Part shown: positions 7,111-54,684 of the stretch, in pieces
Numbering within the stretch: the stretch's first letter is position 1
Layout: each line of letters starts with the position of its first letter
From: Eubacterium sp.
Lineage (GTDB): Bacteria > Bacillota > Clostridia > Lachnospirales > Lachnospiraceae
Assembly: GCA_024681515.1 (NCBI GenBank)
Contig: JAILAR010000026.1
Coordinates: 72,799-135,302, forward strand
Direction of reading: 5' to 3'
Length of the DNA stretch: 62,504 nt
Made by a program: the position numbers and the translations under genes
Notes under the pieces: model-generated
What the model saw: only the letters and a program-made list of their open reading frames with translations
Told to the model about the DNA's origin: nothing
Databases searched by the model: none

Positions 7111-7163
7111 TTATTCCATACTTCGCGCCTTCCGGCGCTCCGTAGATTATCGCTTCGCACGTA
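7111..7163 (-). repeat. Interspersed hairpin repeat, full-length copy (inverted)
   Basis: Read on the minus strand it begins TACGTGCGAAG, continues to ACGGAGCGCC, a GGAA loop, then GGCGCGAAGTATGG and AATAA. It aligns along its whole length with the copy at 40514-40570. The stem GCGCC/GGCGC is perfect, and the outer TAC pairs with GTA across a purine mismatch loop (GGA opposite GAA). It sits in the gap between the rpmF terminator and plsX. It is the only copy on the minus strand and so does not precede a gene in its own direction. A roughly 20-bp imperfect direct repeat starting CTTTGCGATA (about 7100 and 7203) flanks it. Confidence 0.7.
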
Positions 7164-7302
7164 GTTACCGATCACATTCCTTACAATATTTATACAGTCC
7201 GTGCTTTGCGATAATCATTCCTTGCATTATTAAGCGTTTTCATATAAAATAGTTTAGTCTATGTCCGGATGGGACATGTACTTTTGCGAGGAGGAGCAGA
7301 CC

Positions 7303-8319
7303 ATGAGTGTAAATATCGTCATCGATACATTGGGAGGAGATAACGGCGCACCTGTATGTGTTGCCGGGGCTGTGAAAGGATTGAAAAAAAATCCGGATGT
7401 GAAACTGTATCTGACCGGCAGAAAAAAGGAAATTGACGGTCTGTTGTCCAAGTATGACTATGACAAAAACCGGATCGAAGTGGTTGACTGCTCCGAAGAG
7501 ATCACCTGTCATGATGCGCCCGTAGAGGCGGTCAAGAAAAAGAAGGATTCTTCTCTTGTGGTTGGCCTCAATCTTGTGAAGGAAGGCAAGGCGGATGCAT
7601 TTGTCTCCGCAGGCAGTTCCGGTGCGGTTCTGGCCGGCGGCAGTCTGATCGTCGGACGTGCCAAAGGCGTGAAAAGAACTCCGCTTGCACCGCTGATCCC
7701 CACAACGGAAGGTATGTCTCTGCTCATTGACTGCGGAGCCAATGTGGATGCAAAACCTGAGGTACTTGTCCAGTTTGCCAAGATGGGTTCGATCTATATG
7801 GAAAACATCGTCGGTGTAAAGAATCCGCGAGTTGCCATCGTGAATATCGGAACTGAGGAAGAGAAGGGGAATGCCCTGGTGAAGGAAACCTTCCCCCTGC
7901 TTAAGGCATGCAAGTCCATCAATTTTGTGGGAAGTATCGAGTCCCGGGAGATCCCATTTGGAAAGGCGGATGTCATCCTGACGGAAGCATTTGTCGGAAA
8001 TGTCATTCTGAAACTCTACGAAGGCCTGTCTAAGATGATTCTGAAGGAAATGAAACGGGCCATGATGTCCACCCTGAAAAGTAAGCTTGGGGCATTGATG
8101 ATCAAAAAATCGCTGAAAAAGACGTTAAACAGTTTCAGCGCCAGCAATAAGGGAGGCGCTCCGCTGCTGGGTCTCAAAGGTCTTGTGGTGAAGGTGCATG
8201 GCAATTCCGGCGAGGAAGAGTTCATTTCCGCCATCCGTCAGTGCAGGAACTTTGTAAAAACAAATGTCAGCGGCAAGATCATCGAAGGCCTTATGGATGA
8301 AGGAACCGTCTCGGAGTGA
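7303..8319 (+). CDS. plsX: phosphate acyltransferase PlsX
   Basis: Makes acyl-phosphate from acyl-ACP at the start of membrane phospholipid synthesis, feeding PlsY. The 338-residue protein starts with the family hallmark IVIDTLGGDNGAP. It also has SAGSSGAVLAGG and the LTEAFVGNVILKLYEG segment seen in PlsX. ATG 7303 is preceded by GAGGAGGAG; an upstream in-frame ATG at 7261 would add 14 residues not found in the family. An acpP gene usually lies between plsX and rnc in Firmicutes; here the 100-base gap has no such gene. Confidence 0.95.
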   Translation: MSVNIVIDTLGGDNGAPVCVAGAVKGLKKNPDVKLYLTGRKKEIDGLLSKYDYDKNRIEVVDCSEEITCHDAPVEAVKKKKDSSLVVGLNLVKEGKADAFVSAGSSGAVLAGGSLIVGRAKGVKRTPLAPLIPTTEGMSLLIDCGANVDAKPEVLVQFAKMGSIYMENIVGVKNPRVAIVNIGTEEEKGNALVKETFPLLKACKSINFVGSIESREIPFGKADVILTEAFVGNVILKLYEGLSKMILKEMKRAMMSTLKSKLGALMIKKSLKKTLNSFSASNKGGAPLLGLKGLVVKVHGNSGEEEFISAIRQCRNFVKTNVSGKIIEGLMDEGTVSE

Positions 8320-8359
8320 GCAGCTACGTGATTGAATTCATGGAATCGATATCGTGATC

Positions 8360-8387
8360 CTGGGGGCAAAATACCTTTTGACCCCAG
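8360..8387 (+). terminator. Hairpin between plsX and rnc, possible weak terminator
   Basis: Twelve-base arms (starting CTGGGG and ending CCCCAG) with a single mismatch enclose a TACC loop. There is no T-run on the plus strand after it, so it may slow transcription or protect the mRNA end rather than terminate. Confidence 0.5.
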
Positions 8388-8419
8388 CATCATAATATCA
8401 GAAACAAAAAGGATATGGC

Positions 8420-9112
8420 ATGAATTACGAGGAATTGGATTTCGGGCCGCTGGAGGAACGGATCGGTTATCATTTTAAGGATCCGACGTTGCTCCGTACG
8501 GCACTGACACATAAATCATTTGCGTCGGAATATCATGTTCGGGAAGTGCCGCAGTATGAACGGCTGGAATTTCTGGGTGATTCCATTCTGGAGTATATCT
8601 CCAGTGAGGCGCTTTTTGAACGCTATCCGAAGCTCCCGGAAGGAGAACTGACAAAGAAACGGGCCAGTCTGGTCTGCGAATATACCCTGTCCCAGATCAC
8701 GAAGGAACTTGGCTATGGAGACTATGTGATCCTGGGAAAAGGAGAAGATCTGACAGGCGGACGAGAGCGTCCGTCGATCCTTTGTGATCTTTTTGAAAGT
8801 GTGCTTGGGGCGATCTACCTGGATGGTGGGATGGAGCCTGCGAAAACGTATGTAGAGCGGCATCTTCTGACCGATTTGGAGCATAAGACCCTGTTCACGG
8901 ACGCAAAGACGATCCTGCAGGAATATGCGCAGAGTAATGGTCTGGAACTGACCTATGAACTGCTGGACCAGTCCGGACCGGATCACCTGAAAGTTTATAC
9001 ATCCAGAGTTCTGATGGGCGGTACGCCATGGGAAACCGGACAGGCACATTCCATCAAGGGAGCTCAGATGGAGGCAGCGCATAAAACGCTGCGGAAACTG
9101 GGAATTTCATGA
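8420..9112 (+). CDS. rnc: ribonuclease III
   Basis: Double-strand-specific endoribonuclease that processes rRNA precursors and structured mRNAs. The 230-residue protein has an N-terminal RNase III domain with the signature YERLEFLGDSILE (catalytic Glu and Asp) and the second acidic cluster DLFESVLGAIYLDGG. A C-terminal double-stranded-RNA-binding domain covers roughly residues 155-228. The length is typical. rnc-smc-ftsY is a conserved Firmicutes order, and smc follows after a 46-base gap that carries a copy of the interspersed repeat. Confidence 0.97.
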   Translation: MNYEELDFGPLEERIGYHFKDPTLLRTALTHKSFASEYHVREVPQYERLEFLGDSILEYISSEALFERYPKLPEGELTKKRASLVCEYTLSQITKELGYGDYVILGKGEDLTGGRERPSILCDLFESVLGAIYLDGGMEPAKTYVERHLLTDLEHKTLFTDAKTILQEYAQSNGLELTYELLDQSGPDHLKVYTSRVLMGGTPWETGQAHSIKGAQMEAAHKTLRKLGIS

Positions 9113-9117
9113 CCCAA

Positions 9118-9151
9118 AGAGCGCATAAGCGCGAAGTATGAAATAGATAGG
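9118..9151 (+). repeat. Interspersed hairpin repeat, 3' part
   Basis: AGAGCGC, an ATAA loop, then GCGCGAAGTATG and AAATAGATAGG, directly before the smc start. The inner stem GCGC/GCGC is perfect; the 5' arm of the full-length element is missing. The 3' AGG is the only candidate ribosome site for smc. Confidence 0.65.
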
Positions 9152-9158
9152 ATAAACA

Positions 9159-12100
9159 ATGTATTTAAAGAGTATAGAAGTCAACGGATTTAAATCCTTC
9201 GCGAACAAGATGGTATTCAAGTTCAACGAAGGCATCACAGCAATCGTCGGACCCAACGGTTCCGGCAAGAGTAATATCGGTGATGCAGTTCGCTGGGTAC
9301 TTGGTGAACAGAGTGCCCTGAAACTGCGTGGATCGAAGATGGAGGATGTCATCTTCGCAGGAACCGAACTTCGAAAACCGCAGAGTTTTGCGTATGTTGC
9401 GATCACACTGGATAACTCCGATCACAGTCTGCCTGTAGAGTTCACGGAAGTTACTGTGGCCCGCCGGGTGTACCGCTCCGGTGAGAGTGAATATCTGATC
9501 AACGGAACCGTGACACGTCTCAGGGATGTGGCGGCACTGTTCTTTGATACAGGTATCGGTAAGGAGGGCTATTCCATCATCGGTCAGGGTCAGATTGAGA
9601 GGATCCTGTCCGGAAAACCGGATGACCGCAGGGATCTGTTCGATGAAGCAGCCGGTATCGTAAAGTACAAAAAGAACAAGCAGGCGACTGAGAAGGCACT
9701 GGAACAGGAGCATAACAACCTGAATCGTGTAAATGATATTCTGTCCGGTCTGGAGGAGCGGGTAGGCCCTCTGGAGAAGCAGTCCGAGAAGGCAAAGCAG
9801 TACCTGAAACTGAAGGAAGAGCAGAAACGTCTGGATATCAATCTCTTTAATGTCGAGATCGACCAGATCGAAGAAAAGATCGGGAAGACACAGGAGAAGC
9901 TGGACATTGCCGAAGCGGAGCGCGCACGTCTGCAGGAAGAATATGACCGTACAAAAGAAGAGTATGACCGTCTGGAATCCGAGCTGGAAAAGATAAATGA
10001 GAGAATGCAGGAACTTACGGACGAGTCTCATCGGATCTCTCTGGATAATGAGCATGCGGAAGGCGAGATCCGCGTGCTGCAGGAGAAGATCTCCGCTGCA
10101 AAGAATTCCGAACAGGAAATGCTTTTGCAGATGGAACGGATCGATAATGAGATCAAACGTCTTTCCGAAGAAAAGGCAAAGGTGCAGGAAAACCGTGATT
10201 CTCTCAACGCGGAACTGTCGGCGAAGAAGGATGCCGTAAAACAGCTGGAGGATTCTCTTGAAAAGAAAACAGCAGAGCAGCAGGATATATCCCGGCAGAT
10301 GGATGATGCCAAGGGTGCGATCATCGATTTTATGAACCTGGGCGGTACCGTGAAAGAGAAGGTCGCACGGTATGATACCATGCTGGAGACCATTACGCTT
10401 CGCCGGGCGGAGCTTCGTCAGAAATATCTGTCTGAAAAAAGTGCGGAGCAGAAAGCACAGGACGATCAGAAAGTCCTCGCGGAACAGAAGAAAACCGTGG
10501 GTGACGATCTTTCGGACAATCAAAAACGGCTGGACCGCCTGGAAGCGGATCTTCGTGCCAAGACCGATCGCAGTGTCACTGTCCGGAATGAAATGAACCG
10601 CTATAGCCAGGATCTGATTCGTCTGAAATCCAGATTTGAAAGTCTTCGAAATCTGTCCGAACGGTATGAGGGTTACGGAAACAGTATCAAAAAGGTCATG
10701 GAGCAGAAGGATAAGAACCCGAAGATCGTCGGCGTGGTTGCCGACATCATCGAGGTGGATTCCGAGTATGAGACGGCTATTGAGACAGCCCTCGGCGGCT
10801 CTATCCAGAATATCGTGACCGAAGATGAAGAAACGGCAAAACGAATGATCGCATTTCTCCGCGAAGGAAAGCTGGGACGCGCGACCTTTCTTCCCATCTC
10901 CTCTGTCATGGCCCGTGGATCCGTGAACCCTGACGCACTTCGCGAAAACGGAGTGATCGGGATCGCCTCCGAACTGGTGAAGACGGATCCAAAGTATAAA
11001 ACCGTGATCGAAAGCCTGCTGGGCCGGACCATCGTAGCAAAGGATATCGATGCGGCGATCCGTATCGCTCGGAAATATAAACAGACCCTGCGTCTGGTGA
11101 CACCCAGCGGAGAACTGGTGAGCCCCGGAGGCTCCATGACCGGTGGTGCTTTCCGGAACAACAGTAACCTGCTTGGAAGGAAGCGGGAACTGGATGAGAT
11201 CACCGCAGAGATCGCCGAAATGACGAAGAAGTATTCTGCTGCGAAACAGGAGGATGCGGAGCTCTCCATGCAGAGAGAGGCGCTGAAGGAGCAGAAAGCA
11301 CAGTTCCAGTCCGCAATTCAGAAACGGACTCTGGAGATGAACTCCGTAACCATCAATCTGGAACAGGTAGAAAGCAGGCTGGAGGCACTCACAAAGTCAT
11401 TTGCACTGATCAAAAAAGAAAATGACGAGATGGACGGACAGGTAGCGGACATCAACCGCCACAAGGAAGAGTTGTTCGATACCGAGAAACAGCAGCAGGA
11501 AGCCATCCAGGCCAGAAAGGAAGCCATCGCGGATCTGGAAAAGGAAAGTGAGAAGATCGACGGACAGCTGGCTGCCCTGAATGAACAGCTGGCGGAAGCA
11601 AGGCTTGCACTTGGAACCGTTACACAGAGGGATGAGTTCTATCGGAATGACATATCCCGTCTGGCCGGGGATCTGGAACGGCAGCAGGCGGAGAAACAGG
11701 CAATCCTGGACCGCTCCGGAGAACGGGTACGTGAGGCACAGGAGCTTTCCGACCAGATCACCGAAAGCCGCCGGCTGATCGAGACCAATCAGAAAAAACA
11801 GGAGAAGATCAGCGAAGAGCAGAAAAAGAAACAGACAGAGAAGGAAGCCATCAATAAGACCCACAAGGAGTTTTTCACCAAGCGGGAAGCGCTCACGGAA
11901 GACATGACAGGGCTGGAGAAGGAAGCCTATAAACTGACGAGCACATTGGAGAAGCTGGGAGAAAGCAAGGATTCGCTTACGGAATATATGTGGGAGGAAT
12001 ATGAACTGACTTACAGCGAAACCGAGAAGCTTCGGGATGAGGATGAACGCAGCACCTCGGAAATGCGGAAGGAGATCGCCTCTGTCAAGCAGAAGATCAA

Positions 12101-12716
12101 GGCGCTCGGTGAAGTCCATGTGGGCGCGATTGAGGAGTACAAAGAAGTATTTGAACGCTATACCTTCCTGAAGACCCAGCATGATGATATCATCAAGGCG
12201 GAGGAGAATCTCCGGGGCGTCATTGCAGATCTGGATAAGGCCATGAAGGAAACCTTTGCCGAGAAATTCGGGGAGATCCGGGCCATGTTCAGTAAAGTGT
12301 TCAAGGAACTCTTCGGAGGCGGAAAGGCGGATCTGGAACTGGTGGATGAGGAGAATCTCCTGGAAACCGGTATCGTGATCAATGCACAGCCGCCGGGAAA
12401 GAAGCTGCAGAACATGATGCAGCTTTCCGGTGGTGAGAAGAGTCTGACTGCCATCGCCCTGCTTTTTGCGATCCAGAGCCTGAAACCCTCGCCCTTCTGT
12501 CTGCTGGACGAGATCGAGGCGGCACTGGATGATTCCAACGTAACGCGGTTTGCAAAGTATCTGAAGAAACTGACGAAAGACACCCAGTTTATCGTCATCA
12601 CCCACAGAAAGGGTACCATGGAATGCGCAGATATCCTGTACGGTATCACCATGCAGGAGAAGGGTGTGTCCACGCTGGTATCCGTAAACCTGATCGAAGA
12701 CAAACTGGATGACTGA
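9159..12716 (+). CDS. smc: chromosome segregation protein SMC
   Basis: Chromosome-condensing ATPase of the SMC-ScpAB complex. The 1185-residue protein has the full architecture: an N-terminal head with Walker A GPNGSGKSNI (about residue 31), a long coiled coil, a hinge around residues 520-660, and a returning coiled coil. The C-terminal head has the ABC signature LSGGEKSL (about 1090) and Walker B LLDEIEAALDD (about 1113). The length equals the family norm. scpA and scpB are not nearby, which is common. The start follows a weak site, GATAGG, that comes from the end of an interspersed repeat copy. Confidence 0.98.
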   Translation: MYLKSIEVNGFKSFANKMVFKFNEGITAIVGPNGSGKSNIGDAVRWVLGEQSALKLRGSKMEDVIFAGTELRKPQSFAYVAITLDNSDHSLPVEFTEVTVARRVYRSGESEYLINGTVTRLRDVAALFFDTGIGKEGYSIIGQGQIERILSGKPDDRRDLFDEAAGIVKYKKNKQATEKALEQEHNNLNRVNDILSGLEERVGPLEKQSEKAKQYLKLKEEQKRLDINLFNVEIDQIEEKIGKTQEKLDIAEAERARLQEEYDRTKEEYDRLESELEKINERMQELTDESHRISLDNEHAEGEIRVLQEKISAAKNSEQEMLLQMERIDNEIKRLSEEKAKVQENRDSLNAELSAKKDAVKQLEDSLEKKTAEQQDISRQMDDAKGAIIDFMNLGGTVKEKVARYDTMLETITLRRAELRQKYLSEKSAEQKAQDDQKVLAEQKKTVGDDLSDNQKRLDRLEADLRAKTDRSVTVRNEMNRYSQDLIRLKSRFESLRNLSERYEGYGNSIKKVMEQKDKNPKIVGVVADIIEVDSEYETAIETALGGSIQNIVTEDEETAKRMIAFLREGKLGRATFLPISSVMARGSVNPDALRENGVIGIASELVKTDPKYKTVIESLLGRTIVAKDIDAAIRIARKYKQTLRLVTPSGELVSPGGSMTGGAFRNNSNLLGRKRELDEITAEIAEMTKKYSAAKQEDAELSMQREALKEQKAQFQSAIQKRTLEMNSVTINLEQVESRLEALTKSFALIKKENDEMDGQVADINRHKEELFDTEKQQQEAIQARKEAIADLEKESEKIDGQLAALNEQLAEARLALGTVTQRDEFYRNDISRLAGDLERQQAEKQAILDRSGERVREAQELSDQITESRRLIETNQKKQEKISEEQKKKQTEKEAINKTHKEFFTKREALTEDMTGLEKEAYKLTSTLEKLGESKDSLTEYMWEEYELTYSETEKLRDEDERSTSEMRKEIASVKQKIKALGEVHVGAIEEYKEVFERYTFLKTQHDDIIKAEENLRGVIADLDKAMKETFAEKFGEIRAMFSKVFKELFGGGKADLELVDEENLLETGIVINAQPPGKKLQNMMQLSGGEKSLTAIALLFAIQSLKPSPFCLLDEIEAALDDSNVTRFAKYLKKLTKDTQFIVITHRKGTMECADILYGITMQEKGVSTLVSVNLIEDKLDD

Positions 12717-12723
12717 TGGATCA

Positions 12724-12799
12724 TCACGGAGCACGGACTGTATCAAAGATGTAAAGCAAATAAACGATAATTACGTGCGGAGCAATCGGAGAGGGAGGC
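12724..12799 (+). repeat. Interspersed hairpin repeat, rearranged copy before ftsY
   Basis: Two recognisable pieces of the family occur in the smc-ftsY gap: CATCACGGAGCACGG at 12724-12738 (the middle of the element) and TTACGTGCGGAGC near 12770 (its 5' arm), in swapped order. The second piece runs into AGAGGGAGG. The match is partial, so assignment is less sure than for the full copies. Confidence 0.45.
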
Positions 12800-12828
12800 A
12801 TGGCTCATATAAATAATAAGGAGGAACT

Positions 12829-13818
12829 ATGGGATTTTTCCAGAGATTGAAAGAAGGCCTGAAGAAGACCAGTGCCAGTATCGTAAATGTTTTCCGTGCA
12901 ACGGAGATCACCGACGAGTTCTATGACGAGCTGGAGGAGACACTGATCGAAGCTGATATGGGGTATGAAACCACGGAGCGCGTGATCGAGGACCTCAAAG
13001 CCCAGGTAAAGGCCCAGCACTTAAAGAGTGCGGAAATGACCAAGGATCTGGTCATGAACAATCTGCGTGACCAGATGTCCGTGGATGATTCTGCTTACGA
13101 TTTTGAGGATAAGAAGTCGGTGGTATTCGTCATCGGCGTCAATGGTGTGGGAAAGACCACATCCATCGGTAAACTGGCTGCCAAGTATCGGGCCCGCGGG
13201 AAGAGGGTTCTGATCGCTGCGGGTGATACCTTCCGTGCCGGTGCCGTGGAACAGATCCGTACCTGGGCCCAGCGGGCAGGCGTGGATCTGATCGCACAGG
13301 GAGAGGGCGGAGATCCTTCAGCGGTTGTTTTTGATGCGGTGTCCGCTGCCAAGGCTCGGAATACGGATCTGCTGCTGATCGATACCGCAGGACGTCTTCA
13401 CAACAAGAAAAACCTGATGGACGAGCTGGCAAAGATGCGCAGGATCATTTCCAGGGAATATCCGGAAGCAAATGTGGAGTCTCTGATCGTACTGGATGGT
13501 TCTACCGGCCAGAACGCTCTGGAGCAGGCGCGTCAGTTCTCCAATGTAACGGAGATCAACGGTATCATTCTTACCAAGTTGGACGGAACTGCCAAGGGCG
13601 GTATCGCCGTTGCCATCGAGGCGGAACTGAATGTACCGGTGAAATACATCGGCGTCGGCGAAAAAGTGGAAGATATGGAGCGGTTCGATCCGGATCAGTA
13701 TATCACGGCGTTATTTTCCGGTTTCAGTATGCCCAGTGATACCGATCGTATCGTGGACAGCGATATCGAAAAACAGGAACCGGATGAGAATGCGTTTGAT
13801 GTAGATGGGTTGAAATAA
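12829..13818 (+). CDS. ftsY: signal recognition particle receptor FtsY
   Basis: GTPase that docks ribosome-SRP complexes at the membrane for co-translational insertion. The 329 residues comprise an NG domain: a helical N-domain, the P-loop GVNGVGKTTSIGKLA (about residue 103), DTAGRLHNKKNLMDEL, the G4 motif TKLDGTAKGG, and the FDPDQYITALF end. The acidic A-domain found in E. coli FtsY is essentially absent, as usual in Firmicutes. AAGGAGG precedes the ATG. A short acidic tail after residue 305 is not part of the fold. Confidence 0.97.
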   Translation: MGFFQRLKEGLKKTSASIVNVFRATEITDEFYDELEETLIEADMGYETTERVIEDLKAQVKAQHLKSAEMTKDLVMNNLRDQMSVDDSAYDFEDKKSVVFVIGVNGVGKTTSIGKLAAKYRARGKRVLIAAGDTFRAGAVEQIRTWAQRAGVDLIAQGEGGDPSAVVFDAVSAAKARNTDLLLIDTAGRLHNKKNLMDELAKMRRIISREYPEANVESLIVLDGSTGQNALEQARQFSNVTEINGIILTKLDGTAKGGIAVAIEAELNVPVKYIGVGEKVEDMERFDPDQYITALFSGFSMPSDTDRIVDSDIEKQEPDENAFDVDGLK

Positions 13819-18586: not shown

Positions 18587-19352
18587 GATCATGGATCATG
18601 TGGAACTGTCGGAAGAAATGCAGAGCCGTATTCTTTCGAATGTGGACAGACATTTTGAAAAAAAGAAAAGAAAACGTCAGCTGCGGATCTGGCTTCCGGT
18701 GATCGGTGTGGCAGCGGCAGCGGCGGTGCTTCTTCTGGTGGTACGGCCCTGGAGCGGAAGAACGACGGTTTCTGACACGGAGAGTGTTACAGAGTCGCAG
18801 ACCGAAGATCCGATTACAGCAGGCACCGAAACAGGAGGACCGATCGTTTCCGGCACGGAGACAGGAGGGACGATCACTTCCGGAACGGAAGATCTTCCGG
18901 GCGGAACAGAGACTGTGACCGAGGTGGATCAGCAGCCCGGGGCTTTCCAGATGACAGAGTACGCCTCGGCAGCGGAGCTGGAAAAGGCGGCAGGATTCCC
19001 GGTCCGGGATCTGAAAACGCTTCCTTTTAACGCTGTGAAATCGGAATACAGGCTGATCGCAGGGACGATCGCAGAGGTAAACTATTACGGAGAAGATACA
19101 AACAAACAGGATCTGGACCTTTCTTACCGCAGATCCAAAGGTGAGGAGGAAAACTCCGGTGTATATAACGAGTATTCAGTGAAGAAAACAGAGATGCTTC
19201 TGGGGGTTCCGATATCCATGCAGGGAGAAGGAGAGCTATTCAACCTGATCTGCTGGTCAGATAAATTCTATTCCTATTCCCTGTATTCAGAGTCCGGGAT
19301 CAGTGAGGCGGCCGCCCTGGAGATGGCGGAAGAGGCGATGAAGGTAAATTGA
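18564..19352 (+). CDS. Single-pass membrane protein, probable anti-sigma factor
   Basis: The 262-residue protein has a cytoplasmic N-terminus of about 40 residues ending in a KKKRKR cluster, one membrane helix (about residues 45-62), then a Thr/Glu/Gly-rich linker with the repeated unit TETGG and an extracellular domain of about 140 residues. The start at 18564 has AAAGGAGG in the end of the sigma gene and overlaps it by 23 bases. This overlap and topology are the basis for calling it an anti-sigma factor; no zinc-binding HxxxCxxC motif is present. The outer domain resembles DUF4367-type domains of other clostridial anti-sigma proteins, but that match is uncertain. The 3' end lies inside a tandem repeat. 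Confidence 0.75.
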   Translation: MTLGKYNEIMDHVELSEEMQSRILSNVDRHFEKKKRKRQLRIWLPVIGVAAAAAVLLLVVRPWSGRTTVSDTESVTESQTEDPITAGTETGGPIVSGTETGGTITSGTEDLPGGTETVTEVDQQPGAFQMTEYASAAELEKAAGFPVRDLKTLPFNAVKSEYRLIAGTIAEVNYYGEDTNKQDLDLSYRRSKGEEENSGVYNEYSVKKTEMLLGVPISMQGEGELFNLICWSDKFYSYSLYSESGISEAAALEMAEEAMKVN

Positions 19353-19408
19353 TGAAGATAAACTGATAAAGGTAAACTGATAAAGGTAAACTGATAAAGG
19401 TAAACTGA
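19339..19408 (+). repeat. Tandem 14-bp repeat, five units, spanning a stop codon
   Basis: Five consecutive 14-base units: TGAAGGTAAATTGA, TGAAGATAAACTGA and three identical TAAAGGTAAACTGA, followed by a partial sixth. The first unit is the last codons of the anti-sigma gene, so the array looks like repeated duplication of the gene end into the gap. Confidence 0.95.
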
Positions 19409-19457
19409 TAAATGAAGGATACCTTTTAAAAAGATTTTTCAAAAAAATATAATACTT

Positions 19458-19486: not shown

Positions 19487-19518
19487 ATAAGGTGTAACAG
19501 ATAAAAACAGAGCACAAA

Positions 19519-19564
19519 AACGTGCGATGTGAGGATAGGCACGCGCAGTATGGAATAAGAAAGG
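19519..19564 (+). repeat. Interspersed hairpin repeat, degenerate copy before the lipoprotein
   Basis: AACGTGCGATGTGAGGAT, then GGCACGCGCAGTATGG and AATAAGAAAGG. The 5' arm and the 3' end match the family; the central stem is shortened. The final AAAGG, with the following GGATGGTAGGA, sits where the ribosome site of the lipoprotein gene should be. Confidence 0.6.
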
Positions 19565-19577: not shown

Positions 19578-20423
19578 ATGAGAAAGAACATGAGCATGAG
19601 CATGAGCAAGAACATGAGGAAAAAAACAGTTGTATGGGCACTTACAGGAGTTATGGCATTGGCATTTGTGGGATGCGGAAGTTCCTCCGCAGGTGCTGTG
19701 GGTGATGCAGGAAAAGAGATAGCGGGAACGTCGGATAATGTGAAGGCTGAAAAGATCAATACGATCGTTCCTTCAACCGACAAAAAGGAGGCTGCTGTGG
19801 TTGAAAAAGAGGCAGTAACGGAGGCAGAAGAATCGGGCGTACGGACAGATGAAGAACAGCTCTGCGGCGGATGGTCATCGGAAGTTTCATCCAATATCAC
19901 GGATGCACATAAGGAGCTTTTCAAAAAAGCACAGGAGACCTTGGCCGGTGCGACCTTTACACCGATCGCATTCCTCGGCAGCCAGGTGGTTGCAGGAACG
20001 AATTACCGTTTCCTTTGCCGGATGGATGCATCGGTAGCGGAGCTGAATGCAAAGCCGGTTTATGCGGTCGTTGTGATCTACGAGGATCTGAGCGGAAATG
20101 CAACCATTTCCGAGATAAAGGCTTCCGAGGTGGAGATCCCGGAAACAGAAGCAGAGATGGTTGGCGCATATGAACAGACGGCAGATTTCTCCATGACAGA
20201 GGAATCCTCCAAGGCAATGAAGCTTGCCACTGCAACACTTACAGGTGCTGAATATAAGGCAGTTGCTCTGCTTGGTTCGCAGGTAGTTGCAGGAACGAAT
20301 TACCGGATCCTCTGCGAAGTGAATAATATGACCGAGACCACGGAGACCGGATGGGCGATCCTGACCGTATATGCGGATCTTGAGGGAAATGCTGAAGTAA
20401 CAGAGATCGAAGAGATGAATTGA
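19578..20423 (+). CDS. Lipoprotein with two cystatin-like domains
   Basis: The 281-residue exported lipoprotein has a basic N-terminus, a hydrophobic stretch and a lipobox-like AFVGC (Cys33). After a charged linker come two homologous domains of about 95 residues. Each has a helix (HKELFKKAQETL; SSKAMKLATATL), then a strand leading into the identical octapeptide QVVAGTNY (about residues 136 and 235), then two strands (VYAVVVIYEDLSGNA; WAILTVYADLEGNA). QVVAGTNY is the papain-inhibitor signature QxVxG of cystatins and equals that of human stefins. A GGW before the first helix matches the N-terminal glycines of that family. Cysteine-protease inhibition is therefore possible but unproven. Its promoter matches that of the ECF sigma factor upstream. 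Confidence 0.8.
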   Translation: MRKNMSMSMSKNMRKKTVVWALTGVMALAFVGCGSSSAGAVGDAGKEIAGTSDNVKAEKINTIVPSTDKKEAAVVEKEAVTEAEESGVRTDEEQLCGGWSSEVSSNITDAHKELFKKAQETLAGATFTPIAFLGSQVVAGTNYRFLCRMDASVAELNAKPVYAVVVIYEDLSGNATISEIKASEVEIPETEAEMVGAYEQTADFSMTEESSKAMKLATATLTGAEYKAVALLGSQVVAGTNYRILCEVNNMTETTETGWAILTVYADLEGNAEVTEIEEMN

Positions 20424-26395: not shown

Positions 26396-26496
26396 TGCGC
26401 GCGAAGTATCGCATGCTCATGTATCAGAGCACTGTCGTAAGCTAAAGAGAAAAGCATATAAACGGAAGATACGTGCGAAGTGTGGAATATAAGGGG
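26396..26496 (+). repeat. Interspersed hairpin repeat fragments before the NlpC/P60 gene
   Basis: GCGCGCGAAGTATCGCATG near 26397 and TACGTGCGAAGTGTGG followed by AATATAAGGGG at 26470-26496. The second joins the 5' arm (TACGTGCG) directly to the 3' part (GAAGTGTGG) as if the central hairpin had been deleted. The terminal AAGGGGG serves as ribosome site for the next gene. Confidence 0.6.
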
Positions 26497-28120: not shown

Positions 28121-28211
28121 CGTAAGTGAGAGTATGTTATGAGAAATGTGTAGGGTACACCTCATGCTCGAACGCAAATTGAAATGCGAAATACATTAAG
28201 GGAGGTGCGGC

Positions 28212-39821: not shown

Positions 39822-40471
39822 TGCGTTATCTGACATTTGCCCTGGCAAAGGGAAGACTGGCAAAAAAATCCATGGCTCTCTTTGAGAAGATCGGGATCAC
39901 CTGTGAAGAGATGAAGGAGCCGGGTACCCGAAAGCTGATCTTCACAAATGAAGAACTGGGCTTTCGGTTCTTCCTGTCCAAACCCAGCGATGTTCCGACT
40001 TATGTGGAATACGGAGTTGCCGACATCGGCGTGGTGGGAAAGGATACTCTGCTGGAAGAAAACCGGAATCTTTATGAAGTGCTGGATCTGGGCTACGGTG
40101 CCTGCCGGATGTGTGTCTGCGGACCGGAGAGTGCCAGAGAGCTTCTGAAGCGAAATGAGATCATCCGGGTGGCTTCCAAGTATCCCAATATCGCACAGAA
40201 CTATTTCAGAAATAAAAAGAATCAGAGCGTGGAAGTGATCAAACTGAACGGCTCCGTAGAGCTGGCACCCATCGTCGGCCTGGCAGATGTCATCGTGGAT
40301 ATCGTTGAAACCGGTTCCACCCTGAAGGAGAACGGACTGACGGTTCTGGAGACCGTCTGCGACCTGTCTGCCCGGATCGTCGTGAACCAGGTGAGTCTGA
40401 AAATGGAGCATGCACGGATCCGCCGCTTCCTGACGGATGTGGCAGAAGCCCTGCAGGCGGAAGAAGACTAA
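39821..40471 (+). CDS. hisG: ATP phosphoribosyltransferase, short catalytic subunit
   Basis: First committed step of histidine synthesis, condensing ATP with phosphoribosyl diphosphate. The 216 residues match the short form that needs His[30 protein letters not shown], and the PRPP-binding [14 protein letters not shown]. The C-terminal regulatory domain of long HisG is absent. It overlaps hisZ by one base. Confidence 0.97.
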
Positions 40472-40513
40472 GCACGGACTCAAAACAGAAATGTACGTAG
40501 ATAAAACGCAAAA

Positions 40514-40570
40514 TACGTGCGTAGTGATGATCTCACGGAGCACGTAAGCGCGAAGTGTGGAATAGAAAGG
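40514..40570 (+). repeat. Interspersed hairpin repeat, full-length copy before hisD
   Basis: TACGTGCGTAG, then TGATGATCT, CACGGAGCAC, a GTAA loop, GCGCGAAGTGTGG and AATAGAAAGG. Compared with the copy at 7111-7163, the outer pair TAC/GTA has become CAC/GTG, a compensatory change. The final AAAGG is the ribosome site of hisD. Confidence 0.75.
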
Positions 40571-48900: not shown

Positions 48901-48922
48901 CAGGGCAGATACAGTGTTTTAC

Positions 48923-48951: not shown

Positions 48952-48977
48952 GAGTCATGGAATAGGAGGAGTTGCCT

Positions 48978-49514
48978 ATGTCAGTCATTACGGATGTTCA
49001 GTTTTGTGCCGAGCCGGAAAAGGGTCCGGATTTGGAACGCATGGAAGAAATCGTCAGAAATGTGATCGACAAAGCGCTGGATTATAAGTCCTGTCCATAT
49101 GAATGCGAGATCAGTGTGCTTTTTACGGACAACGAAACGATCCGCGAGATCAACCGGGACAATCGGGGGATCGATGCTCCGACGGATGTCCTGTCATTTC
49201 CGATGCTGGAATTTGAGACACCCGGAGATTTTTCGTTTCTGGAAAACGAAGACAGTTCTAATAATATCATCGGTTCATTCAATCCTGAGAGCGGGGAACT
49301 GATCCTCGGAGATATTGTTATCTCGTTGGAACGTGCCGCCTCGCAGGCGGAGGAGTACGGACACAGCCTGACAAGGGAGATTGCATTCCTGACGGCTCAC
49401 AGCATGCTGCATCTGTTCGGATATGATCATATGGAAGAAGCGGAGCGGCTTGAGATGGAACGGATGCAGGAGGAGATCCTGGCGGCCGGAGGTTATACAC
49501 GGGACTGTGAGTAA
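48978..49514 (+). CDS. ybeY: rRNA maturation endoribonuclease YbeY
   Basis: Metal-dependent endonuclease for 16S rRNA 3'-end maturation and ribosome quality control. The 178-residue protein has the zinc motif HSMLHLFGYDHM (HxxxHxxGYDH) near residue 138, and the family segments RGIDAPTDVLSFPM and LGDIVISLERA. ATG 48978 has AGGAGG seven bases upstream, and TTG 48972 overlaps that site. Confidence 0.96.
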   Translation: MSVITDVQFCAEPEKGPDLERMEEIVRNVIDKALDYKSCPYECEISVLFTDNETIREINRDNRGIDAPTDVLSFPMLEFETPGDFSFLENEDSSNNIIGSFNPESGELILGDIVISLERAASQAEEYGHSLTREIAFLTAHSMLHLFGYDHMEEAERLEMERMQEEILAAGGYTRDCE

Positions 49515-49575
49515 CTGAAAAATTAAGCATGATTTTAGATCGAAAACAATTCGATGAAAAAACCGGGGAGAGAAT

Positions 49576-50829: not shown

Positions 50830-52042
50830 GAAAATGAAAGATAATTTCTTCTATGACGCCTGTGTGATCGGGGCCGGAGCCTCCGGCCTCGCGGCGGCGT
50901 CCGAACTGGCGTCACGTGGGTATCGTACAGTACTCATTGAACAGAATAAAAAGAGCGGTAGAAAGCTCTATGCGACAGGCAACGGCAGATGCAATCTTGC
51001 AAATGCCGTTCTTTCTGATTCTGCCTATTATGGAAATCTTTTTGCAAAATCCGTGGTTTCAGCGGAATCCGTGCAGGATCTGACGGACTGGCTGGAAGGA
51101 ATCGGTATCCCACTGACAGACAGAAACGGATATCTGTATCCGAAAAGTCTGCAGGCCTCTTCCGTGGTATGGGCTCTGACGGATGCGGCGCGTCTGGCAG
51201 GAGCGGAATTTCTGTATGATACCAAAGTGACTGAGATCTGCTCCGATTCCGGGAGGTCCTGGATCATTAAAACCGAAGGAACAGCAGCGCGGACGATCCG
51301 GTCAGAGAGACTGGTATTATCCATGGGAAGTCCTGCGGCCAGGGGGCTTGGCGCTGCGAAAGCTTCCGAGCTTTATTCTTTATTTGATAATCTGTCTTTG
51401 GAATACCGTCCCTACCAACCGGCACTTTGTCCGCTGGAGACCGAGGAGGACGTGCGCCTGCTTTCCGGAGTGCGGGCAGGATGCCGGATGACGCTTCTGC
51501 ACGGAGATTCCCGAGAAGAGGAAGAAGGCGAAGTCCAGTTCACGGAATATGGGATCTCCGGAATCGTAACCTTTAATCTTGCCACCCTTGCAGATGTAAA
51601 AGATACTGTTCTTTTGAATCTTCTGCCAGAATGGGCATCCGACGATGAACTGCTTTCTTTTTTGCGGGGACAATCACAAAAACGAAGTGCTTTTGGCGCG
51701 TTTAACGGCGTTTTACATGAAAAAGTCATATCCTACGCCTTTGAGCGTTTAAGCCTCGGAAAAGGGAAGAGAGCGCTGTCAGAATGGCAGGATCAGGAAC
51801 TGATCCGTATCATCGGCCACCTTGGGAACATGCCGCTGACGGTTTCCGGAAAAAAAGGCGACCAGGGGCAGGCTGCATGCGGAGGAGTTCTGTGCCGGCT
51901 CCTGGATCCTGACACGATGCAGGTGAAAGGAAGACCGACACTTGCCATAACCGGAGAGGTAACGGATGTGGTAGGACGCTGCGGAGGTTATAATCTGATG
52001 TACGCATTGATCAGCGGGCTCCGGGCAGGAAGAAATCTGTAA
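50822..52042 (+). CDS. FAD-dependent oxidoreductase, HI0933/YhiN family
   Basis: The 406-residue flavoprotein has the dinucleotide motif VIGAGASGLAAASELASRG, the HI0933 signature SGRKLYATGNGRCNLAN and the C-terminal TDVVGRCGGYNLMYALISGL. The family includes BaiN-like reductases, but the substrate here is unknown. ATG 50822 overlaps the DUF3048 stop by eight bases. A second, different FAD oxidoreductase follows. Confidence 0.92.
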   Translation: MNKKMKDNFFYDACVIGAGASGLAAASELASRGYRTVLIEQNKKSGRKLYATGNGRCNLANAVLSDSAYYGNLFAKSVVSAESVQDLTDWLEGIGIPLTDRNGYLYPKSLQASSVVWALTDAARLAGAEFLYDTKVTEICSDSGRSWIIKTEGTAARTIRSERLVLSMGSPAARGLGAAKASELYSLFDNLSLEYRPYQPALCPLETEEDVRLLSGVRAGCRMTLLHGDSREEEEGEVQFTEYGISGIVTFNLATLADVKDTVLLNLLPEWASDDELLSFLRGQSQKRSAFGAFNGVLHEKVISYAFERLSLGKGKRALSEWQDQELIRIIGHLGNMPLTVSGKKGDQGQAACGGVLCRLLDPDTMQVKGRPTLAITGEVTDVVGRCGGYNLMYALISGLRAGRNL

Positions 52043-52065
52043 GTATGAATCTGTCATTCAATCAT

Positions 52066-52100
52066 TCACGGAGCGCTTCGGGCGCTAAGTGTGTAAGCAT
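52066..52100 (+). repeat. Interspersed hairpin repeat, central copy
   Basis: CACGGAGCGC, a TTCGG loop, GCGCTAAGTGTG. The inner stem is AGCGC/GCGCT: the A-G mismatch of other copies is here an A-T pair, and the outer pair is CAC/GTG. The 5' arm and terminal AAAGG are not seen. It lies in the gap before the next gene. Confidence 0.65.
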
Positions 52101-52122
52101 TTAATCAGTCAGGAGCGTGTTC

Positions 52123-53748
52123 ATGCTTCAAATCCGAAACATCAAACTCAAAGTATCATATACGCAGAAGGATCTGATCCGGGCCTGTGAAAGAGTTCTT
52201 CGAAAAAGACCGCTTCCGGATGTACGGATCCTTCGGCGTTCGCTGGATTCCCGGAAGAAGGATCATATTTTTTATCTGGTTTCAGCCGGAGTTTTCGGTC
52301 TGTCTGAAGCCGAGGAAAAGAAGATCATTCGTATGGTTAACGATAATAATATTATGTTAACAAACGAGAAGAAATATGTCTTTCCATACAGTAATATGCC
52401 TTTGGAAACCGATCAGCGTCCGATAATCATCGGTACGGGACCGGCAGGGTATTTTGCAGGATATGTGCTTGCAAATGCCGGCTTTCGCCCAATCCTGTTG
52501 GAACGCGGAAAACCGGTGGAGGAGCGCTCTGCGGACGTAAATGCCTTCTGGGACGGTGGGCCGCTGGATCCGGAAAGTAATGTGTCTTTTGGTGAAGGAG
52601 GAGCCGGTACATTTTCCGACGGAAAGCTTTATACAGGAAACAAAGACAAAGACGGGATCCAGCAGTTTGTTCTGGAAACATTTCATCATTACGGGGCTCC
52701 GAAGGAGATCACCTTTGATGCAAAACCGCATATCGGCACCGATGTACTTTACCGCATCATGCAGAATATGAGACGGGCGATCCTGGATGCCGGCGGAGAG
52801 ATCCTTTTTTCTCACCGTGTGACAGAGATCAGTCGCATACACAAAGGCACGGAGTTCTCGGGATATCGAGTATCAGGAATCTCAGGGGATCCGGATCATT
52901 CGTTTCAGTTTGAAACACCGGCCGTTGTCCTTGCTATCGGACACAGCGCCAGAGATACCTTTGCCATGCTTCTGAACCATGATCTGCAAATGGAGAAGAA
53001 ACCATTTGCCATGGGACTTCGGATCGAGCATCCCCGTACGCTGATCGACCATGCCAGATTCGGAGATCTTGCCGGAATTCTTCCGGCAGCCGATTATAAG
53101 CTGGTGGCGCATACCACAGAGGATCGCGCAGTTTTTTCCTTCTGTATGTGTCCCGGCGGCTATGTGGTCAATGCTTCCACGGAAGACGGAGGAACCGTGG
53201 TCAACGGTATGAGTTACAGCGGCCGCAGCAGCAGAAATTCCAACAGTGCCATCGTGGTAAATGTTCTTCCCGGAGACATTCCCGGAGACAGTCCCATGGA
53301 TGCGGTAGAATTCCAGAGAAATCTGGAGCGCTCTTTCTATCAGGCCGGGCAGGGAAATGTACCTGTCCAGCGACTTGGTGATTTTTGCGAGAACCGGACC
53401 GGACCGTTATCGGAATCATTTCAGCCATGTATCAAAGGAAAATATCAGACGGCCAATCTACGTGATTGTTTACCGGATACCCTTTCTCGTGCTATAATAG
53501 AGGCGATGCCCGTGTTCGATCGGGAGATCCCCGGCTTCGCCATGGATGACGCGATCCTGTCCGGGATCGAAAGCCGGACCTCGTCGCCGGTACGGATCCT
53601 CCGTGATGAATCCCTGCAGGCAACGGATCATCCCGGATTTTTCCCCTGCGGTGAAGGTGCCGGGTACGCCGGAGGGATCATGTCTGCGGCTGTGGACGGA
53701 ATCCGCGTGGCCGAGAAAGTGGCAGAAATGCTTGCACGGACTGAATAA
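52123..53748 (+). CDS. NAD(P)/FAD-dependent oxidoreductase (COG2509-type)
   Basis: The 541-residue protein begins with about 80 residues of ferredoxin-fold-like sequence (LQIRNIKLKVSYTQKDL), then an FAD-binding domain with IIIGTGPAGYFAGYVLANAG, FGEGGAGTFSDGKLYT, AIGHSARDTF and MGLRIEHP, ending GEGAGYAGGIMSAAVDG. Relatives are annotated as uncharacterised FAD-dependent dehydrogenases. ATG 52123 follows CAGGAG; GTG 52117 lies too close. proB follows. Confidence 0.9.
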   Translation: MLQIRNIKLKVSYTQKDLIRACERVLRKRPLPDVRILRRSLDSRKKDHIFYLVSAGVFGLSEAEEKKIIRMVNDNNIMLTNEKKYVFPYSNMPLETDQRPIIIGTGPAGYFAGYVLANAGFRPILLERGKPVEERSADVNAFWDGGPLDPESNVSFGEGGAGTFSDGKLYTGNKDKDGIQQFVLETFHHYGAPKEITFDAKPHIGTDVLYRIMQNMRRAILDAGGEILFSHRVTEISRIHKGTEFSGYRVSGISGDPDHSFQFETPAVVLAIGHSARDTFAMLLNHDLQMEKKPFAMGLRIEHPRTLIDHARFGDLAGILPAADYKLVAHTTEDRAVFSFCMCPGGYVVNASTEDGGTVVNGMSYSGRSSRNSNSAIVVNVLPGDIPGDSPMDAVEFQRNLERSFYQAGQGNVPVQRLGDFCENRTGPLSESFQPCIKGKYQTANLRDCLPDTLSRAIIEAMPVFDREIPGFAMDDAILSGIESRTSSPVRILRDESLQATDHPGFFPCGEGAGYAGGIMSAAVDGIRVAEKVAEMLARTE

Positions 53749-53791
53749 GTGTTGGTATGGAAAATATGGAATAAACAGAAAGGCAATATAT

Positions 53792-54646
53792 ATGAACCCG
53801 AGAGACTTTTTGAAAGATAAACACCGGATCGTAATCAAGATCGGCTCCAGTTCCCTGGTCCACAAGGAAACCGGCGAACTGGATCTTCTCAGGATCGAGA
53901 AGCTGATCCGTATCCTCAGTGATCTGAAAAATCAGGGGAAGGACGTGGTGCTGGTATCCTCCGGTGCCATCGTTGTCGGATGCAAAGCACTTGGCCTGAA
54001 GAAACGGCCGGAGGTACTGTCCATGACCCAGGCATGTGCAGCGCTGGGACAGCTGGAACTCATGATGCTGTACCAGAAACTGTTTCTGGAATATAATCAT
54101 CGGGCAGCGCAGGTACTTCTGACCTTTGATGTCATCACATCCCAGGAACGTCGGATCAATGCGACCAATACTTTGAAGCAGCTGCTGGATCTGGATGTGA
54201 TCCCGGTCGTAAATGAGAACGATACGGTGGCAACCGAAGAGATCGAGTTCGGCGATAACGATACGCTGTCCGCAATCGTTGCGTCTTTGATCAAAGCAGA
54301 CCTTTTAGTACTTCTTACGGATATCGACGGCCTTTATACCGACGATCCAAGGAAGAATCCGGATGCAAAGAAGATCTCCATCGTGGAGCAGATCGATGAC
54401 AAAATGATGAAGATGGCCAAAGGGACAGCGACCGGTTTCGGGACGGGCGGAATGTTCACCAAGCTGTCTGCCGCAAGGATCGCTACGGATTCCGGTGCGG
54501 ATATGGCCATCTGTGATTCATCGGATCTGGAGATCATTCTTCGCCTGCTGAACGGAGAGGATGAAGGGACCTTATTCCTTGCACATGAAGACGATTCCTT
54601 TGACACCACTGATTTTATCGTAAATAAGCGCTATCTGGAGCGCTAA
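53792..54646 (+). CDS. proB: glutamate 5-kinase, without PUA domain
   Basis: First step of proline synthesis, phosphorylating glutamate. The 284 residues comprise only the amino-acid kinase domain: HRIVIKIGSSSLV, VLVSSGAIVVGCKALG, NENDTVATEEIEFGDND, TDIDGLYTDDPR, GTGGMFTKLSAA. The PUA domain of E. coli ProB is absent. The open frame extends upstream through the oxidoreductase gene; ATG 53792 gives the normal start, preceded by GAAAGG within a sequence (TATGGAATAAACAGAAAGG) like the 3' end of the interspersed repeat. Confidence 0.95.
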   Translation: MNPRDFLKDKHRIVIKIGSSSLVHKETGELDLLRIEKLIRILSDLKNQGKDVVLVSSGAIVVGCKALGLKKRPEVLSMTQACAALGQLELMMLYQKLFLEYNHRAAQVLLTFDVITSQERRINATNTLKQLLDLDVIPVVNENDTVATEEIEFGDNDTLSAIVASLIKADLLVLLTDIDGLYTDDPRKNPDAKKISIVEQIDDKMMKMAKGTATGFGTGGMFTKLSAARIATDSGADMAICDSSDLEIILRLLNGEDEGTLFLAHEDDSFDTTDFIVNKRYLER

Positions 54647-54649
54647 AAA

Positions 54650-54684
54650 TACGGAGCGATTTAACGCGAAGTATGGAATGAATA
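54650..54684 (+). repeat. Interspersed hairpin repeat, central copy before the MTHFS-ProA gene
   Basis: TACGGAGCG, an ATTTAA loop, CGCGAAGTATGG and AATGAATAA. Inner stem GCG/CGC, outer pair TAC/GTA. It begins six bases after the proB stop. Confidence 0.7.

What the first reader, a model, noticed from the sequence alone, without database searches (positions are those of the whole stretch)
7111..54684. Dispersed intergenic hairpin element with compensatory changes and a conserved purine internal loop
Copies or parts occur at 7111-7163 (minus), 9118, 12724, 19519, 26396, 40514, 52066 and 54650, with weaker echoes at 28170, 29735 and 53760. The core is ACGGAGC + loop + GCGAAGT. It folds with outer pair TAC/GTA (7111, 54650) or CAC/GTG (40514, 52066), then GGA opposite GAA (purine mismatches), then a GC stem whose sequence and loop differ between copies but still pairs (GCGCC/GGCGC, GCGC/GCGC, GCG/CGC). 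In the 52066 copy, one mismatch becomes an A-T pair. Changes on both sides of the stem suggest selection on a folded RNA or DNA hairpin. The 3' end (TGGAATAnAAAGG) supplies the ribosome site of several genes, so the elements sit in leaders. I do not recognise it as a named family.
Basis: seen in the sequence. Interest (0 to 1): 0.78.

Follow-up and report, generated by a model that had tools for sequence, protein, structure and literature searches.

The report
Portable hairpin leader before many genes
One gut-type bacterium carries at least 147 copies of a two-hairpin RNA-like cassette, almost always pointing the same way as the next gene and usually sitting just before its ribosome-binding site, while close relatives hardly have it.

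Summary
A covariance model finds 147 copies in the own genome, a lower bound. An HpB pattern gives 110 copies here, 7 in one sister MAG, 1 each in two others, 0 in 57 other genomes of the genus. Covariation is well above shuffled and slid controls. No Rfam match.

Placement is the unusual feature. Of 146 copies with a known downstream gene, 144 are sense to it; 105 of 142 intergenic ones end less than 30 nt before an in-frame start, beside the Shine-Dalgarno sequence. A second hairpin family in the same genome shows no sense bias (17 copies). BOX, RUP and SPRITE repeats of pneumococcus are instead enriched between convergent genes.

Best reading: a lineage-specific, modular, dispersed RNA-leader cassette forming hairpins next to an open ribosome site. 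How it spreads, and whether it changes expression, is unproven; one Y1-transposase fragment and no RVT_1 were found.

The parts
7106..7219 (-). Full-length element, HpA + HpB + tail; one of the two copies antisense to the next gene; it lies between two + genes (acetate kinase family 5539-6735; FA_synthesis family 7276-8319)
   Evidence: R1 118.1 bits; context; Pfam; RNA fold gives both hairpins, z -4.3
7145..7216 (-). HpA of that copy: outer stem GATTATCGC/GCGATAATC, loop AAA/GAA, inner stem GCACG/CGTGC
   Evidence: alignment A1, fold
7119..7144 (-). HpB of that copy: TAC-GGA-GCGCC-GGAA-GGCGC-GAA-GTA
7112..7118 (-). 3' tail TGGAATA
40457..40570 (+). Full-length element before a histidinol dehydrogenase gene (start 40581); its HpA outer stem is decayed and it does not fold as the two hairpins
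   Evidence: R1 78.4 bits; Pfam; fold
12716..12842 (+). HpA-type copy between smc and an SRP54-type (probably ftsY) gene; HpB replaced by another module (CGGAGAGGGAGGCATGGCTCATAT)
   Evidence: R1 50 bits (the hit's end runs into the gene start at 12829); element absent from the same spacer in relative G052; Pfam
9115..9145 (+). HpB-type copy between the gene ending at 9112 and smc (start 9159)
   Evidence: R1 22.3 bits over 9021-9151; coordinates
19497..19563 (+). Degenerate copy before the ORF starting at 19578 (no Pfam match)
   Evidence: R1 14.6 bits, E 0.039; Pfam
26419..26495 (+). HpA fused directly to the TGTGGAATA tail (HpB lost); before an NlpC/P60 and choline-binding-repeat gene
   Evidence: R1 33.5 bits; Pfam
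26401..26415 (+). Possible remnant of a second copy (GCGAAGTATCGCATG)
   Evidence: 3 substitutions from the 15-mer; such matches are expected 3.65 times per shuffled window, so weak on its own
52041..52104 (+). HpB-only copy (hairpin 52067-52091) with one mismatch turned into A-T, before an FAD-dependent-protein gene
   Evidence: R1 23.5 bits
54610..54686 (+). HpB-only copy (hairpin 54650-54673) before the gene starting at 54692
   Evidence: R1 32.6 bits
53734..53773 (+). Decayed copy: HpA 5' arm followed by TATGGAAAATATGGAATA
   Evidence: read from sequence; not an R1 hit

Best explanation
A lineage-specific, dispersed leader cassette. Shown: a ~114-nt modular sequence ([outer stem - purine loop - GC stem] = HpA, then [CAC-GGA-GC stem-GAA-GTG] = HpB, then TGGAATA) is repeated at least 147 times in one genome, nearly always sense to a gene and mostly with its 3' end next to that gene's Shine-Dalgarno sequence; base pairing is conserved across most copies while sequence varies; at a locus shared with a sister genome a whole 104-nt unit and an HpA are present in one and absent in the other. 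Inferred: it is transcribed as part of the mRNA, folds into two hairpins ending just 5' of the ribosome site, keeps that site single-stranded and shields the downstream cistron from upstream sequence and 5' decay, so insertion there is tolerated or favoured; HpA-only and HpB-only forms arise by deletion between motifs shared by the two hairpins; the family spread recently as a non-autonomous repeat moved by an unidentified enzyme or by recombination between copies.
For: Copies and distribution. Covariation in 41 aligned copies: 91.3% of cells paired, 15 of 21 pairs with changes on both sides (shuffles 8.2 on average, 0 of 500 as high), score 0.290 against 0.131; slides by 1-3 columns give at most 52.6% paired. 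Outer-stem pairing within a copy 5.68 of 7 against 4.57 when mates are swapped, maximum 4.92 in 500; 37 of 75 perfect. Tetraloops in 67 of 100 HpB copies, 52 of them GNRA. Placement: 144 of 146 sense; 105 of 142 intergenic sense copies have an in-frame start less than 30 nt after the tail; this holds when the upstream gene is far or opposite (33 of 42 within 25 nt) as well as near (65 of 93); 10 of 11 copies at minority-strand genes are sense. Shine-Dalgarno-like motif in 85 of 102 short spacers; the 7 nt after the tail are more often predicted unpaired (0.68, n=56) than positions -14 to -8 of 250 genes without element (0.50). In 9 of 9 comparisons with G052 the spacer lacks the element, by eye; 104-nt unit and 72-nt HpA present/absent against a locus 91-92% identical in G019.
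Against: No expression data. Copies are paralogues and appear to exchange parts, so covariation counts are not independent events. The outer stem of HpA is poorly paired (under 5 of 7) in 20 of 75 copies. G-T against A-C mismatches, a sign of RNA-level selection, is 27:10 in three stems (p 0.008 if independent) but 33:19 (p 0.07) when the outer HpB pair is added. Two of ten folded copies do not form HpA, the outer 3-bp stem of HpB is often shifted or lost in the predicted fold, and two copies fold hardly better than shuffles (z -1.49 and -0.83). 37 of 142 copies are 30 nt or more from a start; some are upstream units of tandem arrays. One Y1-transposase fragment and no RVT_1 were found; other enzymes were not searched for; no target-site duplication could be read. 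Low copy number in sister species argues against a deeply conserved function.
Confidence: 0.5

Rival explanations
1. A purely parasitic miniature element whose unknown enzyme targets the Shine-Dalgarno region on the coding strand; hairpins serve mobility, not the host.
For: One-species amplification; unit presence/absence; a constant 3' tail TGGAATA that could be an enzyme's end; co-orientation would follow from a GGAGG-like target; pneumococcal small repeats are considered parasitic by their authors.
Against: The 5' end is not constant: outer-stem 5' strands take 22 forms in 55 copies while pairing is kept; one truncated Y1 transposase and no RVT_1; no target duplication could be read.
Confidence: 0.27
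2. A cis-regulatory leader: each copy binds one shared protein or ligand and the downstream genes form a regulon.
For: Conserved apical nucleotides in HpA (GGAC, TAAAG) and purine loops could be a recognition surface; it sits at the ribosome site.
Against: Downstream genes in the window are unrelated (smc, SRP54-type, histidinol dehydrogenase, NlpC/P60, FAD-dependent protein; genes elsewhere were not classified); most genomes of the same genus lack it; no CsrA in the genome; HpB or HpA is often missing.
Confidence: 0.12
3. A DNA-level hairpin (cruciform or single-strand substrate) whose paired arms are kept by template-switch repair of imperfect palindromes, with no RNA role.
For: Quasi-palindrome repair can mimic compensatory change (recalled); the differences from G019 lie between direct repeats flanking hairpins, as in slippage; the G-T/A-C test is not decisive.
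Against: The GGA/GAA mismatches should be erased by such repair but persist; GNRA loops predominate among tetraloops; strict sense orientation relative to genes is unexpected for a DNA-only feature.
Confidence: 0.08

Closest known systems
BOX elements of Streptococcus pneumoniae (Croucher 2011, PMC3049150; passages and section 6 read)
   Same: Small dispersed modular repeat with hairpin RNA fold, variable number of internal modules, size differences between genomes
   Different: BOX is over-represented between convergent genes and 60.8% on the leading strand; here 144 of 146 are sense and most are start-locked. Sequence similarity to BOX was not tested.
REP / RAYT-associated GTAG and CGTC palindromes (PMC3733652; passages read)
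   Same: Short palindromes in high copy; a purine-rich tetranucleotide (GGAG in 38 of 41) at the 5' foot of HpB
   Different: No consensus GTAG/CGTC tag, no RAYT found, two hairpins in direct orientation, gene-oriented
TGTCATTCTGAG-stem-CGAAGAATCC repeat found here in the same genus (no name known to me)
   Same: Same build: outer stem, tandem GA/GA mismatch, GC stem of varying sequence, often a GNA/GNRA-type loop
   Different: Outer sequence constant, present in 21 of 61 genomes, no sense bias in 17 copies (9 antisense, 4 sense between tandem genes)
ERIC and Correia/NEMIS elements (as described in the PMC3049150 background passages)
   Same: Repeats that, when in transcripts, are proposed to be cleaved by RNase E or RNase III
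   Different: Different sequence and hosts (recalled; not compared); start-locked sense placement is not mentioned in the passages I read

Membership tests
REP (GTAG/CGTC) repeats | tetranucleotide tag GTAG or CGTC at one end of the palindrome | tested here: not met
   In 41 aligned copies the HpB foot is GGAG (38) or GAAG (3); the HpA foot is GGAG (17), AAAG (8), AGAG (7), others (9). GTAG occurs somewhere near a hairpin foot in 3 of 41 copies, CGTC in none of the stretches looked at
REP (GTAG) repeats | RAYT (Y1 tyrosine transposase) in the genome, flanked by the repeats | tested here: not met
   Own genome: one PF01797 match, cut off at a contig end; IS200/IS605-like by my recall of such leaders (sequence seen). 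Genome is 97.4% complete, so a missed gene is possible
BOX elements | modular composite with a variable number of internal units | tested here: met
   HpA-only, HpB-only, tandem HpB and tandem whole-unit copies
BOX elements | enriched between convergent genes, no strict gene orientation | tested here: not met
   1 convergent copy against 144 upstream of a sense gene, compared with 31 convergent of 450 gaps of 60 nt or more (gaps holding elements included): Fisher p 0.002
BOX elements | boxA/boxB/boxC sequence | not tested
   no BOX sequence was fetched
MITE | terminal inverted repeats of constant sequence shared with a transposon | tested here: not met
   the outer stem pairs but has 22 distinct 5' strands in 55 copies and closes only HpA, not the whole element; a transposon with matching ends was not searched for
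MITE | target-site duplication | tested here: inconclusive
   15 orthologous comparisons, too diverged or too rearranged to read a duplication
Any Rfam release 15 family | covariance-model score at gathering threshold | tested here: not met
   0 matches in the window at gathering. At E up to 5 on L028 and L058 none overlaps their strong copies (L028:688-800, 3156-3269; L058:2593-2706, 3284-3502); two matches far below gathering (L20_leader 27.2 bits, Ms_IGR-8 18.3 bits) overlap a low-scoring R1 hit at L058:5740-5874
Intrinsic terminator | GC hairpin followed by a U run | tested here: not met
   HpB is followed by TGGAATA and usually a Shine-Dalgarno
CsrA-controlled leader | CsrA present in the genome | tested here: not met
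   no PF02599 match
Retroelement / SINE-like | reverse transcriptase in the genome | tested here: not met
   no RVT_1 match; genome 97.4% complete

The most novel reading that the evidence does not exclude
A self-spreading, RNA-structured ribosome-binding-site cassette: an unknown mechanism places a folded leader beside Shine-Dalgarno sequences on the coding strand, giving over a hundred unrelated genes of one species a shared 5' leader within the time separating close species. It would belong to a wider class of 'GA-hairpin' repeats (outer stem, tandem GA mismatch, freely changing GC stem) that includes the TGTCATTCTGAG family of the same genus.
Probability: 0.25. Interest if true: 0.85.

Novelty: new variant of a known kind. 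Interest (0 to 1): 0.62.

Why it matters
Small dispersed repeats in bacteria are often taken as parasites parked where they do least harm, after genes. This one sits where it should do most harm or good, mostly directly before the ribosome site, and nearly always in the sense direction. If it modulates translation or mRNA decay, it is a natural example of one RNA leader being copied across a genome and rewiring expression of many genes in one species. It also gives well over a hundred natural variants of one RNA motif for structure and function work.

Tried and rejected
Promoter in the element: the HpA 3' strand reads GATAAT in 14 of 41 copies, but GATGAT in 10, GATTCG in 7 and other things in 10, so a -10 box is not conserved. 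Terminator: no U run. CsrA leader: no CsrA, and HpB loops without GGA are common. Retrotransposition, suggested by 5'-shortened copies: no RVT_1; the shortened forms are better explained by deletion between the repeated motifs CACGGAGC and GCGAAGT (inference). RAYT/REP: no consensus tag, no RAYT found. Phage or plasmid origin: one full-length copy had no match in phage or plasmid records, and an HpB pattern none in viral contigs. Replication-strand effect instead of gene orientation: rejected by minority-strand genes (10 of 11 sense; majority strand judged from the fetched stretches only, and weak on two contigs). The regex was too loose (648 matches, mostly noise); replaced.

Literature: searches listed no paper on this element (listings show the best 5 to 20 only; one search matched 5,316 papers, 12 shown); one search searched six exact repeat strings and found none. 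I read passages of PMC3733652 and passages plus section 6 of PMC3049150; other papers only as search listings. The library lacks most subscription journals. That 5'GGA/3'AAG internal loops form stable sheared pairs in RNA is recalled; one search did not bring a paper on it.

Rows dropped: alignment A1 uses 41 of the 46 copies; I left out five (one near-identical tandem copy, one second unit of a tandem, three with odd spacing). One search used the best 75 of 147 hits, 20 of which pair poorly in the outer stem and are not in its 55-copy counts. One search used 56 of those 75 (start codon 5-25 nt away). One search used 99 sources, leaving out duplicates and stretches without strong hits; its alignment A2 was not used further. 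Genes were called with a simple script of my own, whose start sites are sometimes wrong. One search scored only 150 candidates.
Full report
What is there. All eight are found by a covariance model in the window, one only weakly. The hairpin is the second half of a longer element. Forty-six full-length candidates were extracted from the genome and 41 aligned. The consensus is: outer stem (for example ATTATCGC/GCGATAAT or GAATCATG/CATGATTC), a purine loop, inner stem GCACG/CGTGC or GCGCG/CGCGC, an apical region of mostly 38-39 nt (66 of 75) with conserved GGAC and TAAAG (together HpA); then (T/C)AC-GGA-GCGC...GCGC-GAA-GT(A/G) (HpB); then TGGAATA, usually followed by a Shine-Dalgarno sequence and a start codon.

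Structure. On the 41 copies, 91.3% of cells in a 21-pair structure are paired and 15 pairs show changes on both sides; shuffling 3' letters gives 8.2 such pairs on average and none of 500 shuffles reaches 15; the covariation score is 0.290 against 0.131. Sliding the partners by one to three columns gives at most 52.6% paired. In 75 stronger hits the outer stem of HpA has on average 5.68 of 7 Watson-Crick pairs with its own mate, against 4.57 with swapped mates (maximum 4.92 of 500). Thirty-seven are perfect and 20 have fewer than five pairs; in the 55 with five or more, the 5' strand takes 22 different forms. HpB loops are four long in 67 of 100 copies, and 52 of these are GNRA. The internal loop of HpA is 3 x 3 in 43 of those 55 copies, GGA/GAA being the commonest (9), then AAA/GAA and GGA/GAC (5 each). 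G-T against A-C mismatches is 27:10 in three stems (p 0.008) but 33:19 with the outer HpB pair (p 0.07), so an RNA-strand signal is suggested, not established. RNA folding gives HpA and the inner HpB stem in 8 of 10 copies tried; the outer HpB pairs are often shifted or lost; the window copy at 40457 and the copy in L045 do not form HpA; z-scores range from -4.93 to -0.83. All these counts come from paralogous copies that appear to exchange parts, so they are not independent events.

Number and spread. The 15-mer GCGAAGTRTGGAATA occurs 85 times in the genome, the reversed control never. The covariance model gives 147 matches at E up to 0.01, a lower bound because only 150 candidates were scored. 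In 61 genomes of the genus, an HpB pattern gives 110 copies here, 7 in G019, 1 each in G017 and G013 (the G013 match has no paired stem and may be chance), and 0 in 57. In 397 genomes sampled over the family it gives 85 here, 1 in one other, 0 in 395. The more sensitive model, at E up to 0.1, finds 12 in G019, 7 in G017, 5 in G052, 3 in G002, many of them partial, and 0 in six others. In the named genome collection an HpB pattern hit three stretches: two of one Lachnospiraceae MAG and one of a Colwellia MAG, the last probably chance and not followed up. G019 is that Lachnospiraceae MAG, by identity of contig lengths. So the family existed at low copy in the clade and was amplified in this lineage. 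The tools did not name the window's organism; its assembly is 97.4% complete with 4.6% contamination in 197 contigs.

Placement. Gene calls were made by a simple script over 832,848 bases holding all 147 hits. The next downstream gene is sense to the element in 144 copies, antisense in 2, unknown in 1; 2 of the 144 lie inside a called gene. Of 142 intergenic sense copies, 105 have an in-frame start less than 30 nt after the tail, 77 of them at 10-19 nt; 37 are farther, some being upstream units of tandem arrays. The lock is seen when the upstream gene is 60 nt or more away or on the other strand (33 of 42 within 25 nt, median 14) and when it is near (65 of 93, median 14), so it is not simply a result of short spacers. 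It follows genes, not the contig's majority strand: 10 of 11 copies at minority-strand genes are sense. A Shine-Dalgarno-like motif lies in 85 of 102 short spacers, and the seven bases after the tail are predicted unpaired more often (0.68, 56 copies) than positions -14 to -8 of 250 genes without the element (0.50). The 5' end is less fixed: in 26 of 63 copies with a sense upstream gene the stop codon lies near the element's start, from 10 nt before it to 40 nt inside.

Within-genome control. The genus also carries another hairpin repeat, TGTCATTCTGAG-stem-CGAAGAATCC, with the same build (outer stem, tandem GA mismatch, GC stem of free sequence); 56 copies here, present in 21 of 61 genomes. 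Its 17 copies in the same stretches show no sense bias: 9 antisense and 4 sense between tandem genes, 2 inside called ORFs, 2 other. The sample is small, but it shows that the gene calls alone do not produce the bias of the main element. Against published repeats, BOX, RUP and SPRITE of pneumococcus are over-represented between convergent genes and 60.8-63.3% on the leading strand (PMC3049150 section 6); the element here is the reverse, with 1 convergent copy.

Turnover. Fifteen comparisons with relatives were possible among the 147 copies, using the parts of relatives that had been fetched. In the nine with G052 (86% identical Smc) the spacer lacks the element, judged by eye; not all nine have clean flanks on both sides. 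Between smc and the SRP54-type gene it is a short spacer with its own Shine-Dalgarno. Against a locus of G019 that is 91-92% identical, a 104-nt unit is present here and absent there, between copies of AGGCGCGAAGTATGGAA, and a 72-nt HpA between short GCGA repeats; which state is older is not known. HpA-only and HpB-only forms are what deletion between CACGGAGC or GCGAAGT motifs, shared by the two hairpins, would give. Other G019 loci hold tandem HpB units with periods of 33 nt (L096/L080) and 37 nt (L088), and one (L086) has an element where the homologous place here has none.

What moves it is open. The genome has no RVT_1 match and one Y1 transposase fragment at a contig end; other enzyme families were not searched. 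One full-length copy had no match in phage or plasmid records, and no viral contig holds the HpB pattern searched. The 5' end varies in sequence, the 3' tail TGGAATA is constant.

Most likely mechanism. The cassette is part of the mRNA, folds into one or two hairpins with purine-rich internal loops, and leaves the ribosome site open; it probably insulates that site from upstream sequence and may protect the downstream cistron from decay. Steps shown: sequence, copies, pairing, placement, presence/absence of units between genomes. Steps inferred: transcription, folding in the cell, effect on translation or decay, and mode of spread. Window genes that follow copies are unrelated in function (smc, SRP54-type, histidinol dehydrogenase, NlpC/P60 with choline-binding repeats, FAD-dependent protein, 5-FTHF cyclo-ligase with aldehyde dehydrogenase domain, one without Pfam match), which argues against one regulon; genes outside the window were not classified.

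Novelty. Rfam 15 has no match, and the paper searches named in Tried and rejected listed no description. As a kind, it is a small dispersed palindromic repeat; its strict sense, mostly start-locked placement and freely drifting but paired stems make it an unusual variant.

Noticed in passing
G000 genome-wide (56 copies); relatives G011 134, G051 105, G072 68, G052 51: A second dispersed repeat, TGTCATTCTGAG-[GC stem, often a GNA/GNRA-type loop]-CGAAGAATCC, with a stem that varies in sequence but pairs and a tandem GA/GA mismatch; in 21 of 61 genomes of the genus. No name known to me, no exact-string hit in the paper library.
   Followed up: partly
L017, L019, L030 and other G000 stretches: Further palindromic modules beside the elements: GGGTTATGAGCCGGCTTCCGTGGCCGGCTCATAAGGC, GGATTCGATTCTCC...GGAGAATTGAATCC, and CGGAGAGGGAGGCATGGCTCATAT (3 copies in the stretches searched).
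   Followed up: no
L096 positions 8-103 (same contig as L080, G019 contig 47); L088 1510-1584: HpB units in direct tandem, three at 33-nt period and three at 37-nt period, a sign that HpB plus tail can multiply alone.
   Followed up: partly
L084 (G017) and L181 (G052): The same HpB-only copy with identical sequence before the same gene in two species, apparently an ancestral or transferred copy.
   Followed up: no
54692-56512: One ORF of 606 aa joins a 5-formyltetrahydrofolate cyclo-ligase domain to an aldehyde dehydrogenase domain, directly after a gene that looks like proB (recalled motif).
   Followed up: no
L066 (G017) and L001 (G000 contig 2): A 3-kb region 94-97% identical between genomes whose Smc proteins are 83% identical, so perhaps recently transferred; the element array differs in length between them.
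   Followed up: partly
19337-19412: A short tandem array of 14-nt units (GATAAAGGTAAACT and variants) upstream of the copy at 19519.
   Followed up: no
L058:5740-5874: A weak R1 hit coincides with a sub-threshold L20_leader match (E 0.079), so that hit may be a ribosomal-protein leader rather than an element copy.
   Followed up: no
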